NCBI GenBank assembly: GCA_030019105.1
Contig: JASEGY010000092.1
Span: 1 to 10,585 of the forward strand
DNA: 10,585 nt
DNA from: a bacterium
GTDB taxonomy: Bacteria; UBA9089; JASEGY01
Reading direction: 5' to 3'
In this document: piece after piece, positions 2,454 through 7,860 of the stretch
Layout: every line of letters starts with the position of its first letter
Numbering within the stretch: position 1 is the first letter of the stretch
The notes under the pieces: model-generated
What the model was told of the DNA's origin: nothing
What the model saw: only the letters and a program-made list of their open reading frames with translations
Databases searched by the model: none
Made by a program: the position numbers and the translations under genes

Positions 2454-2538
2454 GCGCAATTGGTAGCATAATTTTAGCACCGGCAGGCAGGTGCCGTGTT
2501 GTAATAGTCAGGTGATGGAAGCAGGAGGGAGGCGGCAA

Positions 2539-3900
2539 ATGATCCAATCATTTCTGGCCAGGGATGAGGGCAAGACGCTGGAGTTCAAGGAAGACTGTCG
2601 GTCTCTTCGTCAGATTGTCCGAACTGCCGTTGCTTTTGCCAATACAGCCGGGGGTAATATTGTCATCGGCGTGCGTGACCGAACTAAAGATGTAATAGGA
2701 CTTACGCATGCGCTGGACGACGAAGAACGACTCGCCAGCGCCTTTGTGGACAGCATTTACCCTCTTTTCGTTCCTGACATTCAGATTCATGCCTGGCGTG
2801 ACCGCGAACTCATTGTTGTCTCTGTCCCGCATGCAGTGGGGCCCTATTATCTTCGGTCGGAAGGCCCGGAAGCGGGCGTGTATGTTCGGTTGGGTTCTAC
2901 AAACCGGTGGGCAGGGCCGGAGATAATTGCCGAAATTAGGCGACTGGCACGTAATACCTTCTTTGATGAACAGCCCCGCCCGAAAATCAACTCGGAAGCA
3001 ATCGACTTCCGTGCTGCTTCCGAGTTCTTTAAGGCGGTGTCTCGATCCCTTACTCCTCCTAAGCGGAAATCATTGGGGCTTATTGTGGAACACGGAGGCC
3101 GTGATATTCCGACTCAGGGCGCTGTTCTCCTTTTCGGCAAGGACCGGCGAGGTTTATTTCCTGATGCCGCTATTCGGTGTGCGCGATTCCTGGGAATAGA
3201 TACAGTACGTTTTATAGACCAGACAGAGATAGACGAATATCTTCCTAAATCTGTCGAAAGCGTTATTTCCTTTATTGAGCGGCATACCTGTAACGGAATT
3301 GAGATCGGACGGGTGCAAGGGCGACAACGCCCGGAGTATTCTCCGCAAGTCGTGCGAGAAGCCATTATTAACGCAATTGTGCACACTGACTACTCGATCG
3401 GGGGCACTGGACTGAAAGTAGCCATTTTTGACGACCGCATTGAGATTACGAATCCGGGATGTTTACCTTTCGGCTTAACTCTCGAAGCGGCTCTTTCCGG
3501 GGTTTCTCGTCTGCGAAACAGGGTCATCGGTCACACTTTTCGGGAATTAGGGCTTATCGAGCAGTGGGGCTCAGGCATCGGCAGGATGCTGGCGGTCTGT
3601 GCTGAAGCAGGTCTTGTGCCTCCAAGGTTTGAAGAAATCGGCACAAATTTCCGGGTTACGCTCTTTAGTAATCAAGCTTCCGTTCCCGCACGACCGGAAT
3701 GGTACACTCTGCTCCTTAAACATCTTGCCTGGGAAGGTCAAATATCCACACGCCAGGCCGCCGGAATCTGGAACACCTCCGACCGGACTGCGAGAACCCG
3801 TTTGCAAAAGCTTGTCACCGAAGGCGTGCTTGCCGCCGTGGGAACAAGTCCTAAAGACCCTCGTAAAACTTATGTCCTCAAGGAGGGCAGACATAGCTAA
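2539..3900 (+). CDS. AlbA_2/Schlafen-type ATP-binding transcriptional regulator (RecG-like C-terminus)
   Basis: 453-aa protein. The N-terminal part (about 8-125) is an AlbA_2 domain: EGKTLEFK at 10-17, then [13 protein letters not shown] at 33-45. The C-terminal half carries a GHKL-type ATPase fold: N-box [10 protein letters not shown] at 273-282 with E274, N278 and H282, a DRIEITNPG segment at 299-307, and a glycine-rich [13 protein letters not shown] stretch. A winged-helix-like tail follows (about 395-450). Such proteins are often labelled 'RecG-like helicase', but there are no helicase motifs. They are thought to be nucleic-acid-binding regulators. Start chosen at 2539 because AGGAGG (2523-2528) lies 10 bp ahead and the AlbA_2 domain begins right after; an upstream in-frame start at 2491 lacks such support. 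The gene looks more GC-rich than its neighbours, which may indicate transfer. hisIE starts 25 bp downstream. Confidence 0.82.
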
Positions 3901-4646: not shown

Positions 4647-5141
4647 ATGATTATTGCTAAAGAAAATGCTGCATTTGTTGTGAAGGAATACATTTCGGAA
4701 ATACACCAATTGTACTCTGAGATAAGCAGTTGGCTTGAAGGTGAACAGCTCACTATTCAAGAAGAGGAAATTGAAATCAATGAGGAGGCACCTGGACGCT
4801 ACAACGCCCCAAGGCTTTTGATACGTGATCCAAGGGGGAACCAAATTGCAGATATAAAACCTATTGGCGCCTGGATAATCGGGGCCAAAGGCGGGATCGA
4901 TATTGTTGGGTTACTTGACAAGGAAGCGGTGGTTTATATGGAAGAAAGTCCCCAATTCTTCACTACGATTTCAGTGGGGGGAGAAGAGATAGAAGAACGT
5001 AGTTCAAAACCCCTCTTCAGGGGGGTAGAACGTCCGGGCTGGTATTGGATCGAAGACAAACGGCGAAGCAAAGCGCATCTTTTGGACAAGGAACTTTTCT
5101 TAGACCTGCTCACAGAGGTGTCAGATTATGAATTCCACTAA
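4647..5141 (+). CDS. Unrecognised 164-aa protein, partner of HEPN gene
   Basis: Not assigned to a named family. The protein is soluble (no signal peptide or membrane span) and rather acidic. Residues 5-45 are helical; residues 53-100 look like a compact beta-rich unit with APRLLIRDPRGNQIADIKP and GAWIIGAKGGIDIVG; the C-terminal part ends with a DKELFLDLL helix. TAAGGAG (4634-4640) lies 6 bp before the ATG, and the stop of hisIE is 10 bp upstream. The last 14 bp overlap the start of the HEPN gene, so the two are likely translationally coupled. Overlap with a putative HEPN ribonuclease suggests an antitoxin or sensor subunit; this is inference from context only. The gene is intact although its partner is broken, as expected if it neutralises a toxin. 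Confidence 0.7.
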   Translation: MIIAKENAAFVVKEYISEIHQLYSEISSWLEGEQLTIQEEEIEINEEAPGRYNAPRLLIRDPRGNQIADIKPIGAWIIGAKGGIDIVGLLDKEAVVYMEESPQFFTTISVGGEEIEERSSKPLFRGVERPGWYWIEDKRRSKAHLLDKELFLDLLTEVSDYEFH

Positions 5142-5475
5142 TCCATTGGACCCGATATGGCAGGCTTATCAAGTTACCAGGGACTGCCTCAAGATTGCTC
5201 AAAAAATGGTCAAGAAGGAAAATTATGAACTACTTAACCGTACCCAATTTATTAATGCTTCTCAAGAGAAGGCTATAGGTTGGATCACGAGAAGTCATGA
5301 TGAGTCGGACGACTTTGTAATTCTTTCGCTTTGGGCAAAATTTGAACGGTTCATCATTGATTACATCCAGGCGAAGGGTCGCAAAATACTTGAGGAATCC
5401 CCTGTTTTATTTTCACAAAGGTTTTACGAAAGGCTTGAGAAAGAAGTGGAGTATTGGAAAATAGACGATATCTTG

Positions 5476-5635
5476 GTATCTTCTTCAAATTCATTGGTAC
5501 AAGGGAAAACTTAAATAATCTCTCGCAAAGACGCAAAGGCGCAAAGAATAAAAGAATATAAGCTCTTAGCGACTTTGCGGCTTTGCGAGAGATAAAAAAC
5601 GGGCTGGGCTATACCATGACTTTTGAAGAGGATAC
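5476..5635. mobile_element. MITE-like palindromic insertion with target duplication
   Basis: About 160 bp. Terminal inverted repeats GTATCTTCTTCAAA (5476-5489) and TTTGAAGAGGATAC (5622-5635) match at 13 of 14 positions, with a further CAT-GGTA block inside each end. The core is a strong hairpin (5518-5593). The flanks are direct copies of ATATCTTG at 5468-5475 and 5636-5643; the next base is G on both sides, so the duplication is 8 or 9 bp. No transposase is encoded, so the element would need one supplied in trans. The parent transposase family is unknown, though an 8-9 bp duplication fits several IS families. Confidence 0.78.
5518..5593. repeat. Hairpin of CGCAAAG repeats
   Basis: Arms at 5518-5546 and 5565-5593 are reverse complements at 26 of 29 positions around an 18-base loop. 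Each arm is built from short tandem words (CTCGCAAAG, ACGCAAAG, GCGCAAAG). It forms the core of the insertion in the HEPN gene. On the + strand it would form a very stable RNA hairpin just after the premature TAA. Confidence 0.85.
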
Positions 5636-5845
5636 ATATCTTGGATGTCTTCAAGGGAACTATTGATTCACGTCTCATTGGGAATGCTAAACAAATCAAA
5701 GACTATCGTGATTGGGTAGCACATAGAAACATAAAGCAAGACTCTCCTCCCAAAGTTTATCCAAAAGTTGCTTACGAAATATTGTCACAAATTATGACGC
5801 AAATTCAAACTTAAAAAGGCACAAGGAGCAAAGGCGAGGTGAATA

Positions 5846-6172: not shown

Positions 6173-6176
6173 GTAA

Positions 6177-6252
6177 ATGGAAAATGGGAAATTAGGAAAG
6201 GGGAAGTATCTTGATTTACTTCCTATTTCCCATTTCTTACTTCCTATTTTTT
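6177..6252. repeat. Imperfect palindrome, copy 1 (GGGAAATTAGGAA type)
   Basis: A purine-rich left half (ATGGGAAATTAGGAAAGG, then GGGAAGTA) is followed by a pyrimidine-rich right half (TACTTCCTATTTCCCATTTC, ending in a T-run), able to fold into a long imperfect hairpin around TCTTGATT. The sequence is closely similar to copy 2 at 6337-6415. It lies between rsfS and the 3' end of tRNA-Ala. On the + strand the hairpin ends in TTTTTT, so it may also end rsfS transcription; on the - strand it is the tRNA trailer. Confidence 0.75.
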
Positions 6253-6255
6253 AAT

Positions 6256-6330
6256 TGGTGGAGGCGGTGGGAATCGAACCCACGACCTCATCCACGCCAA
6301 GGATGCGTTCTCCCCCTGAACTACGCCCCC
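6256..6330 (-). tRNA. tRNA-Ala (anticodon GGC)
   Basis: 75-nt cloverleaf on the minus strand. Acceptor stem GGGGGCG pairs with CGCCTCC and includes the G3:U70 wobble that identifies alanine tRNAs. The D stem is GTTC/GAAC, the anticodon stem CATCC/GGATG around loop TTGGCGT (anticodon GGC, reading GCC and GCU), and the T arm GTGGG-TTCGAAT-CCCAC. Discriminator A73 and an encoded CCA end are present. It lies downstream of tRNA-Gly in the same direction, with no promoter of its own visible, so the two are probably cotranscribed. Confidence 0.96.
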
Positions 6331-6336
6331 CAATTT

Positions 6337-6415
6337 AAAATGGGAAATGGGAAATTAGAAAATGGGAAGTATCTTGCTTTACTTCCTATTTTCCATTTCT
6401 TACTTCCTATTTTTA
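6337..6415. repeat. Imperfect palindrome, copy 2 (GGGAAATTAGAAAA type)
   Basis: Second copy of the palindrome seen at 6177-6252, with the same order of words: GGGAAATTAG, then GGGAAGTATCTTG, TTTACTTCCTATT, CCATTTCTTACTTCCTATTT. It fills the spacer between tRNA-Gly and tRNA-Ala. In the - strand transcript it would form a hairpin separating the two tRNAs. Confidence 0.75.
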
Positions 6416-6423
6416 TAATGGAT

Positions 6424-7680: not shown

Positions 7681-7860
7681 AGTACAGCTCGGCGGAAATG
7701 TCTCCATGGTCTTTCCCCTCGTCCCCACGCTCTGCGTGGGATGCAGACTGTGACGCTCTGCGTCACATATCCACGACGCAGAGCGTCCCGGCTGGGGTTC
7801 CCACGCAGAGCGTGGGAACCAGAGAAACCAGGGAACAACTTCCGCCAACGTGTAGTAGTC
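7681..7860. repeat. Composite palindrome with four ACGCTCTGCGT units
   Basis: Four copies of an 11-bp self-complementary unit lie at 7727-7737, 7753-7763 (ACGCTCTGCGT), 7776-7786 and 7803-7813 (ACGCAGAGCGT). They sit in four small hairpins: 7724-7740, 7750-7766, 7775-7787 and 7798-7818 (9-bp arms). The first pair is the inverted image of the second pair, so the whole is a large cruciform-like structure. Outer ends carry an imperfect inverted repeat containing GGCGGAA (7691-7697) and TTCCGCC (7840-7846). It begins directly after the methyltransferase stop codon. Readings in all frames are arginine-rich and repeat-derived, so it is not a gene. Confidence 0.8.

What the first reader, a model, noticed from the sequence alone, without database searches (positions are those of the whole stretch)
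5468..5644. HEPN gene broken by a MITE-like element with exact target duplication
Seen in sequence: ATATCTTGG at 5468-5476 and 5636-5644, 168 bp apart (divisible by three); terminal inverted repeats of 14 bp (13 matching); a 76-bp core hairpin; in-frame stops at 5512 and 5617. Removing one period joins EYWKIDDIL to DVFKGTIDS in frame and recovers a full HEPN protein. This is a clean, probably recent insertion, and its length would preserve frame were it not for internal stops.
Basis: partly seen in the sequence, partly recalled or inferred. Interest (0 to 1): 0.75.

Follow-up and report, generated by a model that had tools for sequence, protein, structure and literature searches.

The report
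Small jumping element splits toxin-like gene
A 160-base jumping DNA element that carries no gene of its own has landed inside, and broken, a gene for a toxin-like (HEPN) protein; the element belongs to a family with copies elsewhere in the same genome, and its hairpin centre also sits inside unrelated jumping elements, one kind of them in another phylum.

Summary
Observation confirmed; interpretation mostly right. A 160-bp MITE (5476-5635; 14-bp ends, 13 matching) interrupts a HEPN gene and duplicates 8, not 9, bases (ATATCTTG). Among own-genome loci fetched, 15 complete elements with these or variant ends were found; 8 have exact 8-bp duplications. Searched apart, the two gene halves match abutting parts of one protein in 25 of 31 related loci. 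HEPN identity rests on an R-x4-H motif in 25 of 25 relatives and a model closest to HepT toxins. The insertion cuts off the catalytic helix. Beyond the finding: (1) the gene belongs to a two-gene cassette whose partner has no Pfam or NCBIfam family and a frataxin-like predicted fold, so a new toxin-antitoxin pair is plausible, untested; (2) an unrelated MITE broke the orthologous gene of a Thiotrichaceae genome about 13 codons away; (3) ends and cores mix: these ends carry five cores (six with variant ends), and the CGCAAAG hairpin core also sits in MITEs with three other kinds of ends, one in a genome outside this phylum. No transposase with these ends was found.

The parts
4647..5141 (+). 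upstream partner gene U (164 aa), intact; no Pfam or NCBIfam family; frataxin-like predicted fold; overlaps the HEPN start by 14 nt
5128..5475 (+). N part of the HEPN gene, residues 1-116 (the open frame runs on into the element to the stop at 5512-5514)
5468..5475 (+). left copy of the 8-bp target duplication, ATATCTTG
5476..5635 (+). MITE, 160 bp, no gene of its own
5476..5489 (+). left terminal inverted repeat (14 bp)
5622..5635 (-). right terminal inverted repeat (14 bp, 13 matching)
5518..5593 (.). core hairpin with arms built of CGCAAAG units at 8-bp spacing
5512..5619 (+). stretch holding the in-frame stops at 5512, 5593 and 5617
5636..5643 (+). right copy of the 8-bp target duplication
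5638..5814 (+). C part of the HEPN gene, with the RDWVAH (R-x4-H) motif

Best explanation
A non-autonomous DNA transposon (MITE, 160 bp) moved by a trans-acting transposase that makes 8-bp target duplications inserted after codon 116 of a HEPN gene, the second gene of a conserved two-gene cassette. SHOWN: ends, duplication, other copies with their own duplications, intact homologues spanning the site, R-x4-H motif in relatives, HepT-like predicted fold. By the model of a relative, the insertion lies in the short helix just before the one that carries the R-x4-H motif, and it brings three in-frame stops, so the product would be a 128-residue N-terminal fragment without the catalytic motif. INFERRED: the HEPN protein is an RNase toxin, the intact upstream protein its antidote, and the insertion a tolerated loss of the toxin; the transposase is of the DDE type and absent from, or not assembled in, this genome.
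Confidence: 0.93

Rival explanations
1. The N-terminal ORF is a naturally short protein of 128 residues and the downstream ORF is unrelated.
For: Both pieces are open reading frames of their own, and neither alone hits a HEPN model.
Against: Both pieces match abutting parts of one protein in 25 of 31 loci and residues 117-128 are element sequence.
Confidence: 0.02
2. The junction is an assembly artefact: a multi-copy repeat wrongly joined two contigs of a fragmented assembly.
For: The genome is in 1053 contigs and many contigs end inside such elements; 7 of 15 elements have no exact duplication.
Against: Here the flanks are two halves of one gene in register plus an exact 8-bp duplication, which a random misjoin would not give.
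Confidence: 0.04
3. The cassette is not a toxin-antitoxin pair but a two-protein RNA-processing or regulatory module, whose loss is simply neutral.
For: No toxicity data; relatives sit next to ordinary genes, for example between leuA-like and aconitase-family genes in L078; a review passage says that HEPN domains lacking the motif probably act as non-catalytic RNA binders (PMC3710099, passages), though here the motif is kept.
Against: R-x4-H conserved in 25 of 25, HepT-like fold, partner first and overlapping in most loci, scattered contexts including plasmids and a viral contig, lesions seen only in the HEPN gene.
Confidence: 0.4
4. The CGCAAAG hairpin is itself the mobile unit (for example moved by a Y1/RAYT-type enzyme) and the outer inverted repeats are older host sequence.
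For: The same core occurs in four different kinds of ends and as arrays without such ends.
Against: At the window site the 8-bp duplication and the broken gene mark the outer ends as the insertion borders, and the same outer ends with other cores also show 8-bp duplications.
Confidence: 0.08

Closest known systems
Prokaryotic MITEs (review PMC10969869: passages and one section read)
   Same: Short, terminal inverted repeats, target duplication, several copies, natural inactivation of genes (that section names mcy, avrA, hopX1, pyrE).
   Different: Mobilising transposase not identified here; ends and cores combine many-to-many.
BrickBuilt MITE of Porphyromonas gingivalis (PMC4596501: abstract and outline read)
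   Same: A MITE whose interior is a tandem repeat.
   Different: There a 23-nt unit; here 7-8-nt units arranged as hairpin arms, and the same core in MITEs with unrelated ends.
HEPN-MNT (HepT-MntA) toxin-antitoxin systems (PMC7641770, PMC11586414: start of abstract in the listing)
   Same: HEPN gene in a two-gene module, second in order; R-x4-H motif; similar predicted fold.
   Different: The partner gives no nucleotidyltransferase match in 27 members and its model resembles frataxin.
TAACTGA heptamer repeats of Beggiatoaceae, Cyanobacteria and Bacteroidetes (PMC4679880: abstract and outline read)
   Same: Short tandem units with patchy distribution across phyla and no evident means of spread.
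   Different: Those are described as direct repeats, mostly just upstream of start codons; here the units form hairpin arms inside MITEs.

Membership tests
MITE | short element with terminal inverted repeats and no transposase gene | tested here: met
   160 bp, 14-bp ends 13/14; the ORFs of 50 or more codons that touch it are the two gene remnants and two antisense frames that run through its borders
MITE | target-site duplication of constant length | tested here: met
   8 bp exact here and in 7 more of 15 elements; the other 7 have none that is exact
MITE | several dispersed copies | tested here: met
MITE | autonomous element or transposase with the same ends | tested here: inconclusive
   none found in own genome with PF01609, PF13751, PF12762, PF03050; end pattern in 1 of 61 genomes, the own one, and in no viral contig; other transposase families not searched
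IS66-derived (8-bp duplication, ends beginning GTA; recalled) | DDE_Tnp_IS66 transposase in the genome | tested here: inconclusive
   0 of 4 genomes; a fragmented assembly may lack it
HEPN superfamily | R-x4-6-H motif at the end of a helix | tested here: met
   R138 and H143 invariant in 25 of 25 relatives, end of helix 125-143 in the model; window C part has RDWVAH
HEPN superfamily | all-helical HEPN fold | tested here: met
HEPN superfamily | RNase activity | not testable with these tools
   needs an assay
HEPN-MNT toxin-antitoxin | partner is a minimal nucleotidyltransferase | tested here: not met
   no nucleotidyltransferase Pfam or NCBIfam model among 27 members at E 0.1 or better; partner model frataxin-like; a very distant nucleotidyltransferase cannot be excluded
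frataxin/CyaY | sequence-profile membership | tested here: not met

The most novel reading that the evidence does not exclude
MITEs here are combinatorial: the CGCAAAG hairpin is a module exchanged among transposon families with unrelated ends (four kinds seen) and carried across phyla, so that tandem 7-8-bp repeats of bacteria spread as passengers inside MITEs; and the gene it broke belongs to an undescribed HEPN toxin-antitoxin type with a frataxin-fold antidote.
Probability: 0.3. Interest if true: 0.65.

Novelty: new variant of a known kind. Interest (0 to 1): 0.45.

Why it matters
MITE insertions into genes are well known, so the insertion itself is ordinary. Two things around it are less so. 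First, a conserved HEPN cassette with a partner that no searched library knows, found on chromosomes, plasmids and a viral contig; it is a ready candidate for a toxin-antitoxin test, and its HEPN gene was broken independently by two unrelated MITEs about 13 codons apart. Second, the interchangeable ends and cores suggest how short tandem repeats of patchy distribution could travel; for another heptamer the means of spread is described as not evident (PMC4679880 abstract).

Tried and rejected
Natural end of the short ORF: rejected. Nine-base duplication: rejected in favour of 8. IS1595 and IS66 as source of the element: no such transposase in the own genome or in four genomes; left open. The 1177-bp stretch between two exact TIR3 ends in G078 was looked at as an autonomous element: both of its ends are of the same, 'left', kind, and its ORFs were listed but not scanned for families; not a convincing transposon. 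Plasmid DNA search with the 160-bp element: no match, though BLAST's low-complexity filter may hide it. Phage-record search with the HEPN N part: no match. Viral scan with the HEPN N part alone: no relative; with the alignment: one. Plain Foldseek: no match at E 0.001 for either model. Frataxin function of the partner: not claimed; fold similarity only. Sequence search of solved structures: nothing convincing for the HEPN N part, the HEPN alignment or the partner alignment.

Unexplained: why 7 of 15 elements have no exact duplication; how cores are exchanged; which enzyme moves the elements.

Papers (held open library only): search for four core strings: 0 papers. HEPN + frataxin + toxin-antitoxin: 0. 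HEPN + MITE with two further terms: 4 papers, and as whole words: 3; passages of PMC3718332 read: it reports truncated HEPN genes and MITEs in Sulfolobus islandicus, and the passages shown do not join the two. Wording for chimeric or composite MITEs: 34 papers, 12 listed, none about bacterial core exchange by title. HEPN with novel toxin-antitoxin wording: 19 papers, 8 listed, none of the new ones opened. Heptanucleotide repeats: 16 papers, 12 listed, one opened. Bacterial MITEs: 112 papers, 15 listed, two opened. So 'not in print' is not claimed.

Full report
What is there. The window (G000:C975, an assembly of 4.34 Mb in 1053 contigs) carries an element of 160 bp at 5476-5635. Its ends are GTATCTTCTTCAAA and the inverse of GTATCCTCTTCAAA (13 of 14 match), its core is a hairpin of 30-nt arms at 5518-5547 and 5564-5593, and as a single strand it folds far better than 200 shuffles (z -10.25). 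It is flanked by ATATCTTG at 5468-5475 and 5636-5643. Reading on from the HEPN start at 5128, stops occur at 5512, 5593 and 5617, then 5812.

It is a family. A search of the own genome with the element gave 60 matches (40 of 217 candidates scored); near-complete copies are L002, L003, L005 and L006, with L004 and L015 among the partial ones. Allowing one mismatch in the ends, the own-genome loci fetched hold 15 complete elements; 8 have an exact 8-bp duplication (L001 = window, L003, L006, L011, L021, L036, L045, L046) and 7 do not (L002, L005, L034, L035, L042, L044, L054). One of the 15 (L011) has variant ends (GTATCTTCTCAATA). The end pattern occurs 35 times in G000 and in none of the other 60 genomes searched, one of which is of the same genus.

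The broken gene. The halves were searched apart. The N part matches four plasmid records; the C part matches the same four. In Cupriavidus pauculus they fall on residues 1-116 and 115-171 of one 183-residue protein: they overlap by the two codons that the target duplication doubles. A scan of one genome for each of 84,980 species with a four-row alignment gave 28 loci, mostly in Burkholderiaceae, in Thiotrichales (Thiomargarita, Parabeggiatoa and others) and one in a Planctomycetota assembly, the closest relative (55% and 57% identity of the two parts). Over 31 loci (these 28 plus L060, L061, L064; L060 repeats L065 and L064 repeats L074), the two parts abut with exactly that overlap in 25. 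The other six: L079 (frameshift), L089 (insertion), L092 (contig end), and L080, L090, L091, where the C part matched elsewhere or not at all but the frame is open through the motif.

Parallel breaks. In the Thiotrichaceae genome of L089 another element, 165 bp with 24-bp ends (22 matching), sits in the same gene about 13 codons upstream of the window's site (after residue 103 against 116). It is a MITE of its own: 40 full-length copies among 64 matches (40 of 561 candidates scored); of 11 distinct copies examined 6 have exact 8-bp duplications, and the one in the HEPN gene matches at 7 of 8. L079 has a frameshift near the same place and L088 a replaced 3' end; the C end of the Burkholderia glumae copy L061 also departs from the others after the motif, which I did not examine. 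An open partner frame was seen in every one of the 31. Lesions only in the HEPN gene are what a toxin and antidote would give, but the numbers are small and several contigs come from metagenomes.

Modular ends and cores. The 15 elements carry six kinds of core: CGCAAAG hairpin (5), GTCAGG heptamers (5), GGTTCAA type (2), and one each of three others, one of these with the variant ends. Conversely the CGCAAAG hairpin sits in two further kinds of ends in the same genome: GGCAYCCTTCAAAAA (3 of 3 elements found, but their loci had been fetched for resembling the element; 2 exact 8-bp duplications) and GGCCTTGWTCAYCGTTTCGGC (2 of 8 rows; 1 of these 2 with an exact duplication). In G078, a genome outside this phylum, GTAACTGTTCACA ends occur 167 times (100 listed, 30 fetched); with 8 loci fetched for the core, 18 rows were examined (two of them spans that include a smaller row): 17 are flagged as carrying the core and 10 have exact 8-bp duplications; of the 15 rows from loci fetched by the ends alone 14 are flagged. 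The triple unit occurs exactly in 5 of 193 genomes, and the GTCAGG triple in 8 of 193; the reversed control gave none in either. Tandem arrays without such ends also exist (G001, G178). So the core is not tied to one transposon family. Exchange by recombination or nested insertion is my inference; copies L008 and L016 of the second kind keep a piece of the window family's own right end inside, which favours nested capture in those.

How it most likely works. A trans-acting DDE-type transposase recognises the ends and makes 8-bp duplications; the core is a passenger. The site in the HEPN gene was probably tolerated because losing a toxin while keeping its antidote is harmless. Neither the transposase nor the toxicity has been shown.

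Noticed in passing
window 6175-6258 and 6338-6421: Two 84-nt direct repeats (90% identical) made of GGGAAAT-like heptamers flank the tRNA at 6256-6330: another short-unit hairpin repeat of this genome.
   Followed up: partly
window 6256-6330: ARAGORN calls a tRNA-Ala (ggc) here, while Rfam reports a tmRNA exactly at its gathering score; the tmRNA call looks spurious.
   Followed up: no
window 7713-7827: A 29-nt inverted repeat (86%) with a GCGTGGGA motif, a palindrome of a kind I recall from other phyla (recalled, not searched).
   Followed up: no
L006 1301-1447: A copy of the window's element inserted next to the end of another MITE-like element (GGCCTTG... ends), which looks like a nested insertion.
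   Followed up: partly
L011 1418-1447: A bare 30-bp palindrome made of two GTATCTTCTCAATA ends with no core between.
   Followed up: no
L153 591-1767: Two like ends of the GTAACTGTTCACA family enclose 1177 bp with several ORFs, perhaps a composite of two MITEs.
   Followed up: partly
L088 after 5522: The 3' end of the HEPN gene is replaced by other sequence just after the motif.
   Followed up: partly
window 2491-3900: A Schlafen/AlbA_2 plus RecG-C-like protein (Pfam 3.8e-19 and 7.4e-26) with weak PADLOC matches to Argonaute-associated models (best 6.1e-10).
   Followed up: no
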